A stretch of 7,938 nt of DNA from an uncultured Oscillospiraceae bacterium (GTDB taxonomy: Bacteria > Bacillota_A > Clostridia > Oscillospirales > Oscillospiraceae): contig CAAEOU010000319.1 of NCBI GenBank assembly GCA_900757695.1, positions 1 to 7,938 on the forward strand, in the 5' to 3' direction. Made by a program: the position numbers and the translations under genes. A model generated the notes under the pieces. The model was not told where the DNA came from. It did no database searches and worked only from the letters and a program-made list of their open reading frames with translations. This document shows, in pieces, positions 1 to 6,161 of the stretch. The number at the start of each line of letters is the position of its first letter. Position 1 is the stretch's first letter.

Positions 1-155
1 GCGCGAAAGTAGAGCACGTATTTGGTGTCGTCAAGAAACAGCTGCGTTTCCGAAAAACACGATACCGAGGGCTCGAAAAGCAGAGAGCCAAATTCAATAC
101 CATGTTCGCATTGGCGAATCTGATTCTGGCTGACAGGCCCTGCCTGGCAGCTTGA
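1..155 (+). CDS. IS5-family DDE transposase, C-terminal fragment cut by the window edge
   Basis: The reading frame starts at base 3 and gives 50 residues, beginning AKVEHVFGVVKKQLRF and ending LANLILADRPCLAA before TGA at 153-155. The segment E-H-x-F-x-x-x-K followed by K-T-R-Y-R-G-L and a hydrophobic FALANL tail is the end of the catalytic domain of IS5-type DDE transposases. The Glu of 'VEH' (residue 4 here) would be the third catalytic acid. Such enzymes cut and rejoin the ends of their own insertion sequence. The rest of the gene lies left of the window, so intactness cannot be judged. It runs towards the 3' end of the minus-strand paralog at 232-1029, which lacks its usual C-terminus. 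The family call is firm; the IS subgroup is not determined. Confidence 0.85.
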   Translation, partial: AKVEHVFGVVKKQLRFRKTRYRGLEKQRAKFNTMFALANLILADRPCLAA

Positions 156-231: not shown

Positions 232-1029
232 TTAGCATTTGTGCGGTGTTGCCCTAAGCATCTTTTCGGGATTGCAGCACTGAATTCCACAACGATAGAA
301 GCACTGAACTCCGCAACAGTCGTCCCCCACCTCTGCAATTACGCAGTAAACTGGACCTGGGGCATAGGGTCGGCAGTCGATCTCCAAGATGTCCCCTGGC
401 TGATAAGGAACCGGGAGGTTGCACGTTACTTCTCCGAACGCAGATTCGTCAAAGCAAAATTCATCATACATCCTTCGGGAAACATGATGCCGATAGTACT
501 GCAATTCTCCGCCGGGTTCGGCAATAAACGTATATTCCGGCCGCCGAAACTCCCATGCTTCTTCGGGGGTGTGCGGCTGCGACAGGTCAAATAGATCTAA
601 AGACCAATACATTTCGTCCCATTTATCATCATAATCCTCATTATTGTGGCGGTAGAACACCATGCATTCCTGCGCTTCTTTCAGATTTGCTGCCATAAAT
701 GGGCCGTCAATGGTATCATTATCATCTTTTTTATAGCCAACGAGCCAGATCTTTAGAACGCAATGCCCGGCTTCAGCCCGCTCCAGCGCCGCCAGCGCAC
801 GATTTAAGACAGCAAGGTACTCAGCGGCATCAGCCTGATAGCTCGCTTGACCGCATTTTAAGAATGCCGTAAGATACTCCCGTTTTTCTTTTAGGGAAAT
901 GGGCGCTCCGGCAATCAGCTCCATATAATCGCCGGGTCTTAGCAATTCGGGGGATGCCAACAGGTATTCCCGCAGCTCCGGAGCGTCCAGCAGCGAGATA
1001 GTTTTAGCTTGTAACATCGGCAGTTTCAA
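232..1029 (-). CDS. Acidic PGDILE-motif paralog 1, C-terminally truncated; function unknown
   Basis: This 265-aa protein is of unknown function and is the third gene of a tandem paralog array. The N-terminal block (TISLL...PELREYLLASPELL, about residues 10-31) and the middle signature (LPVPYQPGDILEIDCRPY, about 205-222) match its two neighbours closely. The siblings (326 and 334 aa) carry a further ~75 residues with a 'RR..GELP..C.WM.ALS.KI' block that is missing here. The protein instead ends in a Cys-rich tail with a duplicated CGxQC unit. I chose the TTG start at 1027-1029. It gives 'MK', aligned residue for residue with the siblings, and has AAAGGAG nine bases upstream; the ATG at 1015-1017 would remove conserved residues. 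The TTG overlaps the TGA of the preceding paralog by two bases, so translation is probably coupled. The truncation lies next to an IS5-type element and the copy may be non-functional. Confidence 0.75.
   Translation of the reverse strand: MKLPMLQAKTISLLDAPELREYLLASPELLRPGDYMELIAGAPISLKEKREYLTAFLKCGQASYQADAAEYLAVLNRALAALERAEAGHCVLKIWLVGYKKDDNDTIDGPFMAANLKEAQECMVFYRHNNEDYDDKWDEMYWSLDLFDLSQPHTPEEAWEFRRPEYTFIAEPGGELQYYRHHVSRRMYDEFCFDESAFGEVTCNLPVPYQPGDILEIDCRPYAPGPVYCVIAEVGDDCCGVQCFYRCGIQCCNPEKMLRATPHKC
277..317 (-). repeat. 24-bp-period imperfect tandem repeat encoding CGVQCFYR / CGIQCCNP
   Basis: GCACTGAATTCCACAAC at 277-293 recurs as GCACTGAACTCCGCAAC at 301-317, exactly 24 bases later with two differences. 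It lies in frame in the truncated paralog, so on the minus strand it gives two adjacent eight-residue units starting CGVQC and CGIQC. Neither sibling has this duplication. It marks the point where alignment with the siblings breaks down. Confidence 0.7.
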
Positions 1030-2006
1030 TTCATTTCACTCCTTTTGACATGTTTTATTGGACAAAATCGAAAGGTATTTTTCAGTCTGGCAATCGTCTC
1101 ACCAAAGGACGGCTCTGATTGTATTTTACTTGACAGTGCTCTCATCCAGCCACAGTTCTCTGGAAGTTCACCTGAATGCCGTCTTACATGATAAAATGCA
1201 GCAAGATAAGACTGCGGAAACAAGTCGGTATTCTCATATTTCACCTGATCCAGTGCGACGATTTTCGATGTGGCATGTGCCGTTTGATAAAGATATTGCG
1301 CTGCGCAGTCAGGATTGTCCGCAGTCAGCAGGATACCGTACACCGGCCCGTATTGATAGGGGCGGCAGTCGATCTCCAGAATGTCACCAGGATGATAAGG
1401 AACCGGAAGACTCAATTTGTCGGAAGTACGTCCAAACGCCGCCTCTGCCTGCCCGTATGGCGTTTCATCTGCATTTTGCCCATGAATATAATATTGGATC
1501 TCTCCGTGTGGATCTGCAAGAAAGGTGTAATCTTCACTGCCATACCACTGAAAGCTGTCTATAGCCTTCAAGTCATACTGTTTGATTCTCCAATACTGTA
1601 TCTGCCAGTCATCCTCATCTTCAGCACGAGCAGTTCGCAGTATTTCCGCAAAGGCATCCCAGGAATGCGTATAATAAGGACCGTCTGTATATTCCCCAAC
1701 ATTGTCAGCGCCACAAAACTCAGCGGCAATCAACGTTTCTCCGGCTGGGCGGGTCATTGATTGAAGCGCCGCATCAAGGCAGGTCACATAACGATGGACA
1801 AATTCAGCGTCACCGCTGTCTGTCAGGCTGGCTTCCAGCTCCCTTAAAAGCTCCTGCTTTGCCCACAGACTGATTGGCGCGCCTGTGATGATATTGGCGT
1901 AATCCGCAGTCTGGAGCTTTTCAGGCGATGCCAGCAGGAAGTCGCAGAGCTCTGGAGAAGAATGGAGCAGGGAGATGATTTTTTCTTGTACGGGTGTTGG
2001 CTTCAT
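1026..2006 (-). CDS. Acidic PGDILE-motif paralog 2, full length; function unknown
   Basis: This is a 326-aa protein of unknown function. The start is ATG at 2004-2006 (MKPTPVQEKIISLL), preceded by AAAGGAGG at good spacing and aligned with the MKPTSIQ start of paralog 3. A longer reading to 2087 would run through a terminator hairpin and is not credible. Visible blocks are an N-terminal helical segment (PELCDFLLASPEKL, about 18-31), a middle 'DGPYYTHSWDAFAEI' and 'YWRIKQYD' region, 'YTFLADPHGEIQYY', the signature LPVPYHPGDILEIDCRPYQY (about 225-244), and a C-terminal 'HVRRHSGELPENCGWMRALSSKI'. There is no signal peptide or membrane segment, so it is probably cytosolic. The gene sits behind its own copy of the duplicated leader. 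Its TGA overlaps the TTG start of paralog 1, making a two-gene unit. I recognise no catalytic motif. Confidence 0.85.
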   Translation of the reverse strand: MKPTPVQEKIISLLHSSPELCDFLLASPEKLQTADYANIITGAPISLWAKQELLRELEASLTDSGDAEFVHRYVTCLDAALQSMTRPAGETLIAAEFCGADNVGEYTDGPYYTHSWDAFAEILRTARAEDEDDWQIQYWRIKQYDLKAIDSFQWYGSEDYTFLADPHGEIQYYIHGQNADETPYGQAEAAFGRTSDKLSLPVPYHPGDILEIDCRPYQYGPVYGILLTADNPDCAAQYLYQTAHATSKIVALDQVKYENTDLFPQSYLAAFYHVRRHSGELPENCGWMRALSSKIQSEPSFGETIARLKNTFRFCPIKHVKRSEMN

Positions 2007-2013
2007 TGGGTAT

Positions 2014-2036
2014 TCCTCCTTTACGAGGATAGTATA
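2014..2036 (-). promoter_or_regulatory. -10-like box and SD-pairing hairpin before paralog 2
   Basis: On the minus strand TATACT (2036-2031) lies 25 bases from the ATG. No convincing -35 is seen: the expected place falls in the T-tract of the upstream terminator. Just downstream, TCCTC (2029-2025) can pair with GAGGA (2018-2014) across the six-base loop GTAAAG, covering the Shine-Dalgarno. Promoter function is tentative; the hairpin is a direct reading of the sequence. Confidence 0.35.
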
Positions 2037-2052
2037 GCAGGGAGGGTGGGAC

Positions 2053-2085
2053 AAAAAGGGAGCAGCAACCGGTGGCTGCTGCTCC
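2053..2085 (-). terminator. Rho-independent terminator after paralog 3
   Basis: On the minus strand a 12-bp stem (GGAGCAGCAGCC with GGTTGCTGCTCC, one A-C mismatch) closes a three-base loop and is followed by CTTTTT. It lies 44 bases after the stop of paralog 3 and about 50 bases before the start of paralog 2. Confidence 0.85.
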
Positions 2086-2128
2086 AAATATCATGGCGCC
2101 ATATTTTCACTTGATCCAGTCACGGAAA

Positions 2129-3133
2129 CTAATGCGAATGAAATGCAAATACTTCCCCCAAATCAACAATCGTCTGTCCAGCACTTGGATTTGCATAGAT
2201 TTTTTTCGATAGTGCTTTCATCCAACTGCACTGATCCGGAAGATCACCATCATACCGTCTGATATGATACACCGGACTGCTCACATGATACATCGCATAA
2301 ATATGCCGTTGACAACAAAAGTTAGATCGCTCATAGCCCAAGCTGTCCAATGTATCAACTAGTACACCCCAATTATTTGTTGGATAAAGATAACGTGCAG
2401 GATAGCCGGAATCGCCCGATGTAAGTATCAGGCAATAGGACGGTCCATATTGATAAGGTCGGCTGTCTACTTCCAGAATATCACCTGGCTGATAGGGCAT
2501 CGGCAGGTTGCGTTCCATATAAGTACTTTCATCTGTAGCACAGCCAAACGCTTGTACCACATACCCATATAGCGTTTCACCATCATAATCACTAAGCCGA
2601 AAGTACTGAACATCTCCATCCGGATCTGCAATATAGGTATAATACGTATTATAGTGCGCGTTATAGCCCCCAAAGAGACTATCAGAATCCGGCGTATCCC
2701 GCCAAAAATACTGCTTTATCTCCCAATACTGTATATTCCACGCCTCGTTATCTGCTTCGCGTTGCTCCTGAATGATCTCCGGGAAAACATCCCATGAGCG
2801 GACATAGTAGGGACCAAACGAACGCTCTCGCTCATCATTAGCGGCGTAAAACTGAGCGCAGAATAACTGCTCATATGTTTCTTCCAGTGGCTCCATTGCA
2901 TCCTCCACACATTCCACATAAATATGAACAAGCTCTGCGTCTTCGCTGTCTGCCAAACTTTCCTCCAGCTTTTCAAGCAGCTCGAGCTTCTTTGAAAGAC
3001 CAAGGGGAGCCCCAGCAATCAATTCTGCATAATCAGTGGTCTGAAGTAATTCAGGAGATGCCAGTAGGTATGCTTGCAGCTCCGGAGAATGGAGCAGGGA
3101 AATAGTCTCTGTTTGTATGGATGTTGGTTTCAT
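2129..3133 (-). CDS. Acidic, Tyr-rich PGDILE-motif paralog 3, full length; function unknown
   Basis: This 334-aa protein of unknown function is the first gene of the paralog array. It starts at ATG 3131-3133 with AAAGGAGG upstream and stops with TAG. By my count it has 54 Asp/Glu against 21 Lys/Arg, and 32 Tyr. Blocks shared with paralog 2 are the start (MKPTSIQTETISLLHSPEL), 'FGPYYVRSWDVFPEI', 'IQYWEIKQY', 'YTYIADPDGDVQYF', the signature LPMPYQPGDILEVDSRPYQY (about 220-239) and the C-terminal 'IRRYDGDLPDQCSWMKALSKKI'. It also has a Tyr-rich insertion (about residues 160-175) not found in paralog 2. There is no signal peptide, membrane helix or recognisable catalytic motif. It is flanked on both sides by near-identical terminator/leader units, so it looks like a self-contained transcription unit. 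Strong acidity would suit an immunity-type or nucleic-acid-mimic protein, but that is inference only. Confidence 0.85.
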   Translation of the reverse strand: MKPTSIQTETISLLHSPELQAYLLASPELLQTTDYAELIAGAPLGLSKKLELLEKLEESLADSEDAELVHIYVECVEDAMEPLEETYEQLFCAQFYAANDERERSFGPYYVRSWDVFPEIIQEQREADNEAWNIQYWEIKQYFWRDTPDSDSLFGGYNAHYNTYYTYIADPDGDVQYFRLSDYDGETLYGYVVQAFGCATDESTYMERNLPMPYQPGDILEVDSRPYQYGPSYCLILTSGDSGYPARYLYPTNNWGVLVDTLDSLGYERSNFCCQRHIYAMYHVSSPVYHIRRYDGDLPDQCSWMKALSKKIYANPSAGQTIVDLGEVFAFHSH

Positions 3134-3179: not shown

Positions 3180-3212
3180 AAAAAGGGAGCAGTAGCCGGT
3201 GGCTGCTGCTCC
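3180..3212 (-). terminator. Rho-independent terminator of the WYL-NADAR operon
   Basis: On the minus strand a 12-bp stem (GGAGCAGCAGCC with GGCTACTGCTCC, one G-U pair) closes the loop ACC and is followed by CTTTTT. It begins 18 bases after the TAA of the HhH-GPD-like gene. It is the same element as at 2053-2085, with a slightly better stem. Confidence 0.9.
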
Positions 3213-3229
3213 AAATGTCATAATTTCAA

Positions 3230-3934
3230 TTACTTCTGTCCGCGCATATGCTCCCAAATCAGGTAATCAACTTGCCGTACAGTTAACGTCGGGTATTTTT
3301 CGTTGAGAATTTTTGTTGTTGCTTCAATAATGGGCTGTGCATCTGCTAATTCCACATTCGCGCTGTATTCGCCCTTTAAGTATCTCAGAATGTGCCGATC
3401 CGGTTTGACCTTAGTATCATCTCCGCAGAGCATTTTCAAATAAGCTAAGGATATCCCGCTTTTCTGTCCACGAATTTTCAGATACTCTGCCTCTAGCTCC
3501 GGATTCCACTTTTCTTCATAATTCTGTAGCGTTTCAATGCCATTTTCCACAAACAACTCTGCGCACATCAAAACAGCTTCTGCTTTCAAGATGCCATTGC
3601 GCGATGAAGTTCGCTGCATATTTTTTAAGTACTTTTTCCCCACGAATGCTTCAATGCCAACATTCTGGATATTGTTTTTCAGCTCACTCATTGTATGCTG
3701 CTCTTTTTCCGCAGGAAATTCTGCGTTATCACGATAAGGCGTTATATGAAAAGCCTCATAATACCGTCTTACCGTATTTTCTGTTGACGTGTATCGAACT
3801 CCAATAGAATATATTGCATCTAGCACACAAAGCGGAAGATTAGAATAGAAATACTCTTTGGGCAGTTTCGCATTACCCAAATCGAAATTCTCATCCAACT
3901 TTTTTGCAAAGTCTCTAAGCTTTTGTTCGTCCAT
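3230..3934 (-). CDS. HhH-GPD (DNA-glycosylase-like) protein
   Basis: This is a 234-aa protein, probably cytosolic. The C-terminal half has a segment 'YLKIRGQKSGISLAYL' (about 151-166) resembling a helix-hairpin-helix, then 'KVKPDRHILRYL' (about 175-186). In the HhH-GPD superfamily (endonuclease III, AlkA, MutY) a conserved Asp follows the hairpin and activates base removal; D179 would be that residue. No C-terminal four-Cys iron-sulfur motif is present. The N-terminal half (about 1-110) is not recognised. The ATG at 3932-3934 has no clear Shine-Dalgarno and a TAA lies two codons upstream, so the start cannot be earlier. It is the last gene of the operon, 23 bases after the 160-aa gene, with a terminator right behind. 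The fold assignment is from motif reading only; substrate and activity are unknown. The gene looks AT-richer than the regulators. Confidence 0.65.
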   Translation of the reverse strand: MDEQKLRDFAKKLDENFDLGNAKLPKEYFYSNLPLCVLDAIYSIGVRYTSTENTVRRYYEAFHITPYRDNAEFPAEKEQHTMSELKNNIQNVGIEAFVGKKYLKNMQRTSSRNGILKAEAVLMCAELFVENGIETLQNYEEKWNPELEAEYLKIRGQKSGISLAYLKMLCGDDTKVKPDRHILRYLKGEYSANVELADAQPIIEATTKILNEKYPTLTVRQVDYLIWEHMRGQK

Positions 3935-3957
3935 ATTTTAGCAGCATTCACTGCTTT

Positions 3958-4440
3958 TCACCAATGAAACGCTTCCCCATCCCCAGTATTCTCCCAATAC
4001 TCCCGCGCCAGCTTTTCCAGACCTTCCGCAAAGCTGTCGATATGCTGATAGCAGTCGCAGTTATAATAAGGCTGATACCGCATCCAGCCGTCCTTCAAGT
4101 GATACCCATATCCAAGCTCCGGCTTACAGACAGATCGAATCAGCCCGCGAGCGTAAGTCGTGCAGGCATCGGACGTATAGTCGCTGACACCGCTGGGATA
4201 ATCCGTCTGCGCTGTGATTGGGACGATAGCCGTCAGCAGTGCCGCACCATCCCGGGTGAGCTTCTCCTCCTCCGCTTCCTGCGTCATAAAATAATGCCAC
4301 GTGTCCAGAAACAACTTCCGAAATTCATCCAGATCCATTTTGCGGTCACAAACCAGTTCCATATTAAACTCATCCCAACGATCCGTCAAATCCATACACA
4401 TCTGCTGCCGCTGCACCTCCGGACTCAATTCATGCTTCAT
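3958..4440 (-). CDS. Unrecognised 160-aa protein in the WYL-NADAR operon
   Basis: I do not recognise this family. The protein is soluble-looking, with no signal peptide or membrane helix. Visible blocks are an N-terminal acidic helical region 'DLTDRWDEFNMEL' and 'MDLDEFRKLFLDTWHYFMTQEAEEE' (about 17-59), a central 'AIVPITAQTDYPSGVSDYTSD' (about 71-91) with 'TTYARGLIRSV' after it, then 'ELGYGYHLKDGWMRYQPYYN' (about 108-127), and an end 'LAREYWENTGDGEAFHW'. The ATG at 4438-4440 overlaps the TGA of the NADAR gene in an ATGA junction, so translation is almost certainly coupled and the two proteins are likely made together. I see no ADP-ribosyltransferase motif and therefore do not call it a DarT toxin. 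Its position makes it a candidate partner of the NADAR protein. Confidence 0.75.
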   Translation of the reverse strand: MKHELSPEVQRQQMCMDLTDRWDEFNMELVCDRKMDLDEFRKLFLDTWHYFMTQEAEEEKLTRDGAALLTAIVPITAQTDYPSGVSDYTSDACTTYARGLIRSVCKPELGYGYHLKDGWMRYQPYYNCDCYQHIDSFAEGLEKLAREYWENTGDGEAFHW

Positions 4441-5093
4441 ACGTCTGTTTCTCCCCTCAGGATCCGCAGAAAATCCTCAAAATCGTTGATCTCAGTCAGC
4501 AGTCCATTTCGGCACAGCGACACATATAGTGCCGCTGCTTTGGCTTGACAGTTGAGGCTTTTCTGCGGGTTAAATTCAATGTCCGTGAAGCCGTCATACT
4601 CCAGCAGCACCGCCGCGCGTTCCGGATTCTGCCGCAGGGCAGTCAGGTACAGCCAATCATAGAACGCCGTCTTCGGCTCCGTTGGATACGCCTGTCCTGC
4701 AAACTGAAATCCGATCAGTGCTCCGGATTCCTTTAACCGTGGATCTCGCTTTGCTTCCTTTGGCGTGCAGGTATATAGGTCCGTGTAAGGGCCGCCGGAT
4801 GCAAATACCTTACCGCCCTGAAAGACATTTTCCACCGGAACGCTTCTCTCCAGCTCCGGCACATAGATGGGCAGGGAAAACGCACTGAGGTTCCGTCCGC
4901 CCTCCAGCGGTGACTTGCCGGAGATCTCAAGGGCATGATGGCCTGGATAGGCGGCTTCATATGCTGCGTGGATTGCAGCAATATTCTTTTGCTTCTGTGA
5001 CACCGCAAAGCCGCCGTTCCATGTAAACTCCGCCTCAAAGGTGTCAAAATAGGGATAGGTTTCCCGAACCATATAAACCGGACGATATGCCAT
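4437..5093 (-). CDS. NADAR-domain protein of the DarT-associated antitoxin type
   Basis: This 218-aa protein shows the pattern of the NADAR family found beside DarT toxins. It starts MAYRPVY and has SQKQKNI (32-38), LEIS-K (55-60), LSAF (69-72), 'VENVFQGGKVFASGGPYTDLY' motifs (about 87-107), AKRDPRLK (114-121), FYDWLY (144-149) and 'YDGFTDIEFNPQKS' plus NCQA (166-184). As known for the family, DarT enzymes attach ADP-ribose to DNA bases and some NADAR proteins remove it from guanosine, acting as antitoxin. The length looks complete. The ATG at 5091-5093 is six bases after the WYL stop, and AAAAGGAG lies inside the end of that gene. The next gene overlaps by four bases. No DarT is visible in the window, so this may be an orphan antitoxin or a shield against foreign DarT. 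The family call is good; the exact substrate is inferred. Confidence 0.85.
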   Translation of the reverse strand: MAYRPVYMVRETYPYFDTFEAEFTWNGGFAVSQKQKNIAAIHAAYEAAYPGHHALEISGKSPLEGGRNLSAFSLPIYVPELERSVPVENVFQGGKVFASGGPYTDLYTCTPKEAKRDPRLKESGALIGFQFAGQAYPTEPKTAFYDWLYLTALRQNPERAAVLLEYDGFTDIEFNPQKSLNCQAKAAALYVSLCRNGLLTEINDFEDFLRILRGETDV

Positions 5094-5099
5094 TGCCGC

Positions 5100-6161
5100 T
5101 CACTCCTTTTCATAGGCCGCAAGGGCCTGACGTAAATCTTCCTTGACCCGATTCCGCAGAGATTCCGGGCTGAGGATCACCACATCCGGGGCGAAATTCT
5201 TGGCAAACTGTTCCAGCGCCCGCTCATTGGTGTACGCGGATACGGTCACGCCTCTTTCGTCCTCGTCCAGAAAGCGAACCTGCGCGCCAAATAGATCCAT
5301 CACATCACTGACCATAGCATGGGTTACCCGAAACCTCGCCTGCACATTTTCGCTGGAATACATATAGGGATGCTCCCGCATATAAGTCGCCAAATCGAGA
5401 CTTCTGCCCCCTGCCCACCTCAGGCGTTCGAAGGGCTTACAAGGCTCATCTGTGATCTGAATGTCACAGATCCGATCCAGCCGATAGTTGGAAATATCAT
5501 CGTATTTATCATAATTGCAAATCAGATAGTATTTGCCCTCTTTGGCGGCCATCTGATAGGGCGAAATGGTGTAGAGCCGCTGGGTGCCATCCGGGCGGCA
5601 TTTCACATGGAGCTGTTTGTCCGTGCCATACTCCAGATACTTGAATATCACCTTGCGATTTCGGCTGATGGCCTCGTCCAGCAGCTCAATGTTGAGGAAC
5701 AGCTGCTTGTTGTCTGCCTGATCCGCTGGCATTTTTGCAATGTGTTCCACCCGGGAACGGAAATAGATACTGGACATGCCCTCGAGTTTTTCCACTAGCT
5801 CTTTGCACTGGCTGTAAGGAACGTGCTTGGAAAATAGCAGCCCGTCAATCAGCAGCCGCAGCTCACTGTCTGTAAACTTCCGCTCCAGATAGAAATCCGA
5901 CCAGAGATAGCTTTCCTCCAGTTCCTTGGTCTTGGGATTTGGCACCATGCGGACAGACTCCCTGTATTCAATATTGTATCCGTAGTCCATGAGGTTTAGC
6001 AGATTCCGCCGGACAGCCTTCCTGTCCGCAGGCATTTGATACTCTGTTTTCAAAATATCAGCAATATCTTTCTGACTCAGCCGATGACTCTCGTCCGTGT
6101 ATTTTTGGAGAATGTCAAGAATATTTAGGATCATTAGCTTCTTTGGCTGCTTTGCATACAT
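5100..6161 (-). CDS. WYL-domain transcriptional regulator (wHTH-WYL-WCX)
   Basis: This is a 353-aa cytosolic DNA-binding regulator. Residues 1-65 form a DeoR-like winged helix ('LSQKDIADILKTEYQMPADRKAVRRNLLNLMDYGYNI' region). The WYL domain spans about 155-236, with 'RLYTISPYQMAAKEGKYYLICNYDKYDDISNYRLDRI' features; YYL (211-213) replaces the literal WYL, and R227, D229 and R230 are the conserved basic/acidic set. A WCX-type C-terminal extension follows (about 274-350). WYL proteins are known to sense nucleic-acid ligands and to control phage-defence and DNA-repair loci. The ATG at 6159-6161 has AAGGAGG eight bases upstream. It is the first gene of the operon, with the NADAR gene six bases downstream, so it probably autoregulates the operon. 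The length is normal for the family. Confidence 0.9.
   Translation of the reverse strand: MYAKQPKKLMILNILDILQKYTDESHRLSQKDIADILKTEYQMPADRKAVRRNLLNLMDYGYNIEYRESVRMVPNPKTKELEESYLWSDFYLERKFTDSELRLLIDGLLFSKHVPYSQCKELVEKLEGMSSIYFRSRVEHIAKMPADQADNKQLFLNIELLDEAISRNRKVIFKYLEYGTDKQLHVKCRPDGTQRLYTISPYQMAAKEGKYYLICNYDKYDDISNYRLDRICDIQITDEPCKPFERLRWAGGRSLDLATYMREHPYMYSSENVQARFRVTHAMVSDVMDLFGAQVRFLDEDERGVTVSAYTNERALEQFAKNFAPDVVILSPESLRNRVKEDLRQALAAYEKE

What the first reader, a model, noticed from the sequence alone, without database searches (positions are those of the whole stretch)
3230..6161. Four-gene WYL - NADAR - unknown - HhH-GPD operon with no DarT toxin
Seen: four minus-strand genes with spacings of 6 bases, a 4-base overlap and 23 bases, ended by a terminator. 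Known: DarT-linked NADAR proteins reverse guanine ADP-ribosylation of DNA; WYL proteins regulate defence and repair loci; HhH-GPD proteins are DNA base-excision enzymes. Inference: the operon is a self-contained module that detects and repairs modified DNA bases, perhaps shielding the cell from incoming DarT-like toxins. The antitoxin is present without its usual toxin.
Basis: partly seen in the sequence, partly recalled or inferred. Interest (0 to 1): 0.8.

Follow-up and report, generated by a model that had tools for sequence, protein, structure and literature searches.

The report
DarT-free NADAR operon with DNA glycosylase
A bacterium carries a four-gene operon that pairs an enzyme type known to strip ADP-ribose off guanine with a DNA-base-cutting type of enzyme under a damage-sensing type of regulator; it looks like a stand-alone DNA protection cassette rather than half of a toxin-antitoxin pair, but its function is untested.

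Summary
In detail: four minus-strand genes (WYL, NADAR, 160-aa unknown, HhH-GPD) with gaps of 6, -4 and 23 bases and a hairpin terminator. The NADAR is of the DarT1-antitoxin type (PF22397, 280 bits) and keeps the published residues E88, K95, D171 and K115. The 234-aa protein models confidently as an HhH-GPD DNA glycosylase fold (pLDDT 94). The 160-aa protein stays unknown.

Missing DarT is not special to this operon. In a tree the window falls in a 31-row, mainly Firmicutes NADAR clade whose other 30 loci show no DarT; of 39 tested genomes with DarT-free loci, 37 show none anywhere. The full four-gene order was found nowhere else in what I could search; pairs recur: NADAR-WYL (one relative, inverted), WYL-HhH (one genome, one fused protein), WYL-160-aa (one fused protein). 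So 'DarT-less antitoxin' holds; 'conserved four-gene module' does not.

Best reading (0.4): an accessory, WYL-controlled cassette that reverses guanine ADP-ribosylation and excises altered bases. It resembles predicted WYL/ADP-ribose-hydrolase defence operons and, in logic, the BapA-Brig3 sugar-hydrolase/DNA-glycosylase operon. Function is inferred only. Verdict: partly supported; new variant of a known kind.

The parts
5100..6161 (-). WYL/WCX transcription regulator, 353 aa, first gene
   Evidence: Pfam WYL 44 bits and WCX 35 bits, both over cut-off; Y212, R227, R230 in 7 of 7 relatives aligned
4437..5093 (-). NADAR of the DarT1-antitoxin type, 218 aa
   Evidence: PF22397 280 bits; E88, K95, K115, D171, E173 present
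3958..4440 (-). 160-aa protein, unknown; 8 homologues found
   Evidence: no Pfam family; AlphaFold pLDDT 50, no usable model
3230..3934 (-). HhH-GPD-fold protein, putative DNA glycosylase, 234 aa
   Evidence: AlphaFold pLDDT 94.3; HhH-GPD glycosylases top the PDB comparison; P178, D179, R180 in 33 of 33
3180..3212 (-). intrinsic terminator after the fourth gene
   Evidence: hairpin z -5.2 with T run
232..3133 (-). three tandem paralogues of an unnamed family downstream; relatives lie in the same loci as NADAR-WYL (L003) and HhH (L149)
   Evidence: outside the operon proper

Best explanation
It is an accessory, WYL-controlled nucleic-acid protection cassette. Proposed working: the WYL/WCX regulator senses single-stranded DNA or nucleotide fragments made by damage, phage attack or a toxin and changes expression of the operon. 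The NADAR, a free-standing member of the DarT1-antitoxin type, hydrolyses ADP-ribose off guanine in DNA (and perhaps RNA), so it neutralises guanine-ADP-ribosylating toxins such as DarT1 brought by prophages, plasmids or neighbours. The HhH-GPD protein excises bases that cannot simply be restored. The 160-aa protein is an accessory of unknown role. Shown: gene content, spacing, terminator, conserved catalytic residues, predicted HhH fold, lack of DarT in the clade's loci. Inferred: ligand of the WYL protein, substrates of NADAR and HhH, joint function.
For: E88, K95 and D171 in 30 of 30 DarT-free clade rows, K115 in 28 of 30 (R in 2), although no DarT gene is in those loci and 37 of 39 tested genomes with DarT-free loci show none. 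DarT1-linked NADARs of non-cognate species protect from DarT1 (PMC11543638, passages). The WYL/WCX protein PafBC is switched by ssDNA through an RxxR pair (PMC11804915, passages) that this family keeps in 7 of 7. HhH-GPD fold. WYL or Nudix operons centred on ADP-ribose hydrolases were predicted as anti-ADP-ribosylation immunity, with NADAR as an occasional extra (PMC9503650 section 3.8, passages). A NADAR is counted among defence factors of a Pseudomonas regulon (PMC11888443, passages). Pairwise links recur: NADAR-WYL in L003, WYL-HhH in L151 and P0132, WYL-160 aa in P0008.
Against: No activity data. E. [quoted passage not shown] The four-gene order was found only in the window. Among the two-gene neighbours on each side of NADAR in 34 loci few families repeat (13 matching pairs, one of them the split NADAR itself). 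HhH has lower GC (41% against 50-53% for the other three) and no clear ribosome-binding site, so it may be a recent or loosely coupled addition.
Confidence: 0.4

Rival explanations
1. Loose accessory cluster: NADAR acts on low-molecular-weight ADP-ribose or nucleotide derivatives, and the four genes share a regulator or transcript but no pathway.
For: Each part is rare and patchy in the order of G001: PF22397 in 5 of 240 genomes (one of them broken by stops), HhH family in 3 of 240, the 160-aa gene one weak partial match with a stop in 245. An IS5-like transposase end (label by eye) lies at the window's left edge. Relatives of the WYL gene sit by many unrelated genes. Phage NADARs are argued to target mostly small ADP-ribose derivatives (PMC9503650, passages); the only NADAR characterised before DarT1's acts on riboflavin intermediates (PMC11543638, passages).
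Against: Tight spacing with a 4-base overlap and one terminator; the recurring NADAR-WYL, WYL-HhH and WYL-160 aa pairs; the DarT1-type D171 and K115 rather than the YbiA-type glutamate.
Confidence: 0.27
2. Restriction of modified phage DNA, by the logic of BapA-Brig3: NADAR strips a ribosyl or ADP-ribosyl decoration from a phage base and the HhH glycosylase then cuts the exposed base out, leaving abasic sites.
For: Brig3, a base-excising glycosylase, sits in an operon with BapA, which strips glucose from the base first; the same cloned fragment carried an ORF predicted to be an ADP-ribosyl glycohydrolase (PMC13160076, passages), and a Brig1 homologue lies next to one (PMC11078745, passages). 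Relatives of this WYL regulator lie near glycosylase-type genes of two superfamilies, one HhH and one UDG over cut-off, others weak. The HhH family occurs in the phages PBS1, AR9 and Goe21.
Against: Brig1 and Brig3 are UDG-superfamily, not HhH, and the ADP-ribosyl glycohydrolase ORF was discarded as not needed for Brig3 defence. I know of no phage with ribosylated or ADP-ribosylated genomic guanine of its own making (recalled). No PADLOC model matched NADAR or HhH.
Confidence: 0.15
3. Decayed DarTG1 toxin-antitoxin locus that lost its toxin.
For: The NADAR is of the DarT1-antitoxin type, and DarT-linked NADARs surround its clade in the tree.
Against: The other 30 rows of the clade (support 100/86) also lack DarT while keeping catalytic residues; a DarT profile found no DarT in those loci; the genes here form a different operon.
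Confidence: 0.08

Closest known systems
DarTG1 (DarT1-NADAR toxin-antitoxin system)
   Same: NADAR of the same Pfam family with the same catalytic and antitoxin-critical residues
   Different: no DarT gene in the window or in the 30 other clade loci; embedded in an operon with WYL and HhH
Predicted ARG-centred anti-ADP-ribosylation immune operons with a WYL or Nudix regulator (PMC9503650, section 3.8)
   Same: WYL regulator plus an ADP-ribose-removing enzyme; NADAR named there as an occasional extra; a phosphatase-like gene accompanies relatives here (L003, L008, L072, L051, L149)
   Different: no ARG gene; NADAR is the only ADP-ribose hydrolase; a DNA-glycosylase fold is included; no phosphatase in the window
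Brig3-BapA anti-phage operon (PMC13160076) and Brig1 (PMC11078745)
   Same: an enzyme that strips a sugar-type group from a base encoded with a base-excising DNA glycosylase
   Different: HhH-GPD instead of UDG superfamily; NADAR instead of BapA; WYL regulator; no phage data
WYL/WCX DNA-damage regulators of the PafBC type (PMC11804915)
   Same: WYL and WCX domains; RxxR pair and WYL tyrosine at the same spacing
   Different: three other PafB arginines are not at the same spacing; here the regulator gene heads its own small operon
HhH-GPD DNA glycosylases (MagIII, Mag1, EndoIII, OGG2)
   Same: fold over the full length; invariant Asp in the HhH-GPD position
   Different: no Pfam match; own family (phrog_29694); substrate unknown

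Membership tests
DarTG1 toxin-antitoxin system | DarT1 gene in the same operon as NADAR | tested here: not met
   none among the window proteins; DarT in 0 of the 30 other clade loci; outside the window on the native contig not testable
DarT1-type (BC4488-like) NADAR, PF22397 | profile match over the curated cut-off | tested here: met
   280 bits, cut-off 27
DarT1-type (BC4488-like) NADAR, PF22397 | E88, K95, D171 catalytic residues and K115 | tested here: met
   all present in the window at E. coli C7 numbering (PMC11543638)
DarT1-type (BC4488-like) NADAR, PF22397 | guanine-ADP-ribose hydrolase activity | not testable with these tools
   needs purified protein
HhH-GPD DNA glycosylase superfamily | fold | tested here: met
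HhH-GPD DNA glycosylase superfamily | conserved Asp 19-20 residues after the hairpin glycine | tested here: met
   G160 and D179 in 33 of 33; the comparison with EndoIII and OGG1 spacing is recalled
HhH-GPD DNA glycosylase superfamily | catalytic Lys of bifunctional members at the hairpin | tested here: inconclusive
   K158 is K in 16 of 33 and not at the canonical place as I recall it
HhH-GPD DNA glycosylase superfamily | sequence-profile link to known members | tested here: inconclusive
   no Pfam match at E 0.1; no HhH chain in the PDB by profile at E 10; hhalign against 13 HhH-GPD proteins P 2.6% though in register
WYL ssDNA-sensing regulators (PafBC type) | WYL and WCX domains | tested here: met
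   both over cut-off
WYL ssDNA-sensing regulators (PafBC type) | RxxR pair and WYL tyrosine needed for ssDNA binding | tested here: met
   Y212, R227, R230 in 7 of 7, with the spacing of PafB Y196, R211, R214; judged by spacing, not by alignment
WYL ssDNA-sensing regulators (PafBC type) | R181, R204, R208 of PafB | tested here: inconclusive
   residues at the same spacing are Y197, Y220 and S224; no structural alignment made
WYL ssDNA-sensing regulators (PafBC type) | ssDNA binding | not testable with these tools
   needs gel shifts
ARG-centred anti-ADP-ribosylation operons (PMC9503650) | ARG (ADP-ribosylglycohydrolase) gene | tested here: not met
   no such Pfam domain among the nine window proteins scanned
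ARG-centred anti-ADP-ribosylation operons (PMC9503650) | WYL or Nudix regulator | tested here: met
Brig/BapA glycosylase defence | UDG-superfamily glycosylase | tested here: not met
   the glycosylase here has the HhH-GPD fold
Brig/BapA glycosylase defence | phage restriction | not testable with these tools
   needs plaque assays

The most novel reading that the evidence does not exclude
A two-enzyme base-stripping and base-excising system for decorated guanine: NADAR removes an ADP-ribosyl or ribosyl group and the HhH glycosylase cuts the base, under a portable WYL regulator family that has repeatedly picked up DNA glycosylases of unrelated folds (HhH-GPD and UDG) as cargo.
Probability: 0.1. 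Interest if true: 0.85.

Novelty: new variant of a known kind. Interest (0 to 1): 0.5.

Why it matters
What NADARs do outside DarT operons is stated as open in the field's own papers (PMC11543638, passages; PMC11125620, passages). [quoted passage not shown] here a large clade without DarT in its loci keeps that set, which makes the suggestion directly testable. If the operon works as proposed, it would be a toxin-free repair or immunity cassette joining ADP-ribose removal to base excision.

Tried and rejected
Conserved four-gene module: rejected on present data. 80 NADAR loci gave WYL in 1, HhH in 1 (about 4 kb away), the 160-aa gene in 0 (single-sequence phmmer at E 1e-4 plus an HhH profile). 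The 160-aa gene gave one weak partial match with a stop in 245 genomes of the order, 0 of 170 in the family of G014 (which warns that an empty answer without a positive control shows nothing) and no viral locus.

160-aa fold: AlphaFold with 7 sequences gave pLDDT 50; no claim made.

Is the 220-aa neighbour of NADAR-WYL in L003 also an HhH protein? By eye its glycine-to-Asp spacing fits, but BLASTP and hhalign (P 0.8%, family against A4 P 1.9%) give no support. The hhalign test is underpowered: the HhH family itself scores only P 2.6% against 13 HhH-GPD proteins. Left open.

WYL-glycosylase association: I looked at 16 loci of the close WYL family (window, L003, L151, L117-L126, L220-L222); L129, whose WYL is split over frames, and the more distant L127, L128, L130, L131 were left out of the count. 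HhH in 2 (window, L151); UDG just over the Pfam cut-off in 1 (L123, two genes away); weak UDG in 2 (L122 E 2.8e-4; L222 E 0.067); motif by eye only in 3 (L120, L124, L126; no hhalign or PF03167 support); undecided 220-aa family in 2 (L003, L118); none in 6 (L117, L119 at a contig end, L121, L125, L220, L221). L220-L222 were a fresh test: 1 of 3, weak. The pattern was noticed first and tested later, so it is a lead, not a result. In one search the P=100 for L123 is by construction, since it was in the UDG set.

Plasmid or phage carriage: operon DNA has no near match among plasmids; NADAR no match in phage records. The HhH family is on 23 plasmid records, 28-41% identical. HhH in 9 viral contigs, none with a WYL or NADAR hit in the stretch held. 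PADLOC gave WYL models (and weak Cas3c and AbiEii hits) for the regulator, nothing for NADAR or HhH, and a weak PDC-M09A hit for the secreted-looking protein. Foldseek against viral models gave nothing at E 0.001.

Rows dropped before counts: L012 and L026, with split NADAR ORFs, were left out of the tree (their pieces were not joined). 7 of 24 viral NADAR loci carry no DarT, but in all 7 the stretch begins with NADAR itself, so they say nothing about DarT. In the clade 29 of 30 loci hold at least 700 bp upstream of NADAR, 25 downstream, 24 both. Of the 43 loci without DarT, 39 had their genomes searched; L057, L061, L071 and L075 were not given. The Pfam scan of neighbours took 100 ORFs: 98 of the 130 immediate neighbours and two more of L003.
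Full report
WHAT IS THERE. The window holds four minus-strand genes, from 6161 down to 3230: WYL regulator (353 aa), NADAR (218 aa), a 160-aa protein and a 234-aa protein, with gaps of 6, -4 and 23 bases and a strong terminator hairpin just after the last gene. Further left on the same strand lie three tandem paralogues of an unnamed family, two of them with near-identical upstream stretches that include the terminator, and then, on the plus strand, the end of what looks by eye like an IS5-type transposase. To the right lie a TetR regulator and a secreted-looking protein. No whole genome is held for the window, so nothing beyond its ends could be read.

THE NADAR. It matches PF22397, 'DarT1-associated NADAR antitoxin', at 280 bits, and the one PDB match of its family profile at E 0.01 is the NADAR of Geobacter lovleyi (8bat, E 1.5e-73). 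The residues named for E. coli C7 NADAR in PMC11543638 (passages) are all present at the same numbers: E88, K95 and D171 for catalysis, K115 for rescue from DarT1, and the conserved E173.

NO DarT IN THE CLADE. The best 80 NADAR loci of the genome collection (one search kept 80 of 428 confirmed stretches) were scanned with a DarT profile started from six loci that Pfam calls DarT and extended once with its own hits. 37 of 80 have DarT in the locus, 43 do not, and none of the 30 closest (L001-L030, 51-63% identical) does. In a tree of 103 NADARs the window belongs to a 31-row clade (bootstrap 100, aLRT 86) whose other 30 rows all lack DarT in the locus; most are Bacillota, with two rows labelled otherwise (L005 Coriobacteriaceae, L030 Bacteroidaceae). 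Those 30 keep E88, K95 and D171 in 30 of 30, K115 in 28 (R in 2) and E173 in 29. Over the whole tree, DarT-linked and DarT-free labels need 13 changes, so linkage was gained or lost many times. A genome-wide search for DarT (PF14487) in 42 genomes found it in 3 of 3 positive controls and in 2 of the 39 others; one of these two is a partial match, the other lies apparently 0.4 Mb from the NADAR. Many records are MAGs, so some absences may be gaps. [quoted passage not shown] The data here add a large, mainly Firmicutes lineage with the same residues and no toxin beside it.

THE WYL REGULATOR. It has WYL and WCX domains and keeps, by spacing, the RxxR pair and tyrosine that PafBC needs to bind ssDNA, though not three further PafB arginines. 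Relatives at 52-69% identity exist in the order of G001 and the family of G014, next to very varied genes. WYL next to this HhH family recurs in L151, where the HhH frame overlaps the end of WYL by 11 bases, and in the fused protein P0132 (WYL part 45% identical over 157 aa). WYL next to NADAR recurs in L003 in inverted order. The start of the WYL protein is fused to the end of the 160-aa protein in P0008, a cluster on 4 contigs, which looks like a deletion across a WYL-NADAR-160 order in another lineage. Nowhere else did I see all four genes together.

NEIGHBOURS THAT RECUR. A dual-specificity-phosphatase-like gene (PF00782, below cut-off) lies directly after NADAR in L008, L072 and L051 (the first two are close relatives; L051 is outside the clade), on the opposite strand about 2.4 kb beyond WYL in L003, and beside HhH in L149. 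A member of the window's downstream family lies two genes after WYL in L003 and two genes from HhH in L149, although that family was found in only 3 of 240 genomes of the order, two of them weakly. Predicted ARG-centred immune operons combine an ADP-ribose hydrolase, a WYL or Nudix regulator and a rhodanese-superfamily phosphatase, with NADAR as an occasional extra (PMC9503650 section 3.8, passages). The loci here look like a NADAR-centred counterpart, with a DNA-glycosylase fold in the window's case.

HOW IT MOST LIKELY WORKS. Shown: gene content, transcription-unit anatomy, conserved active-site residues, predicted fold. Inferred: ssDNA or nucleotide sensing by WYL, removal of guanine-ADP-ribose by NADAR, base excision by HhH, joint purpose. 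I give 0.40 to a protection or repair cassette against ADP-ribosylating toxins and base damage, 0.27 to a loose cluster without a shared pathway, 0.15 to restriction of base-modified phage DNA, 0.08 to a decayed DarTG1 locus. The restriction reading gains from Brig3-BapA, where a sugar-stripping hydrolase prepares the base for a glycosylase (PMC13160076, passages), and from a Brig1 homologue that lies beside a predicted ADP-ribosyl glycohydrolase (PMC11078745, passages); against it, such an ORF near Brig3 was discarded as not needed.

IS IT IN PRINT? Searches of a library of open-licence PMC papers for NADAR with DarT (20 of 262 listed), NADAR with WYL (20 of 188), NADAR with phage and guanine (8 of 8), NADAR with DNA glycosylase (10 of 12) and WYL with DNA glycosylase and phage (6 of 6) listed no title or abstract that describes this operon. 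A machine-learning screen reports NADAR-domain proteins among its defence predictions and a UDG in a predicted system (PMC13092281, passages); I could not see its figures or supplements, so overlap is not excluded. I read passages, none in full, of PMC11543638, PMC11125620, PMC9503650, PMC11833690 (also outline and abstract), PMC11804915, PMC11078745, PMC13160076, PMC11888443, PMC7824862 and PMC13092281. Most subscription papers are not in that library.

VERDICT. The 'module' claim is not supported as a conserved four-gene unit, only through its pairs. New variant of a known kind, interest 0.5.

Noticed in passing
window 232-3133, minus strand: Three tandem paralogues of a family with no Pfam match (shared 'PGDILEIDCRPY'-type stretch); the two longer ones have near-identical upstream stretches with terminators, a likely recent duplication.
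   Followed up: partly
window 3-155, plus strand: What looks by eye like the C-terminal end of an IS5-type transposase at the window's left edge.
   Followed up: no
L008:8655-9119, L072:8662-9126, L051:8657-9133, L003:12078-12635, L149:13041-13481: Dual-specificity-phosphatase-like gene next to or near NADAR or HhH genes.
   Followed up: partly
L014:709-1116, L017:7578-7997, L024:5151-5570: An unknown 135-139 aa family adjacent to DarT-free NADARs in three genomes.
   Followed up: partly
L029:2490-4044: Two different NADARs in tandem, PF22397-type then PF08719, 1 base apart.
   Followed up: no
P0070, P0079, P0083, P0106, P0114, P0125: NADARs of about 290 aa carry an extra domain labelled PF21196 in the search table; A1 shows an extra C-terminal tail in such proteins.
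   Followed up: no
L123:3558-4343, L122:7613-8329, L222:3940-4638, L120:1992-3023, L124:5710-6357, L126:7453-8175: UDG-superfamily or UDG-looking genes near relatives of this WYL regulator; only L123 passes the Pfam cut-off.
   Followed up: partly
L151:3526-4773, L220:3357-4655, L221:237-1553: FtsH-like AAA proteins near relatives of this WYL regulator; AAA and Peptidase_M41 scored for L151 and L220, L221 by eye.
   Followed up: no
L049:12659-13291: HhH-family homologue about 4 kb from a DarT-NADAR pair in Paenibacillus rigui.
   Followed up: no
P0154, P0185, L148:7160-8173: HhH-family proteins with a C-terminal part that looks by eye like a MazG-type nucleotide pyrophosphohydrolase; L148 also holds helicase-like and SMC-like genes.
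   Followed up: no
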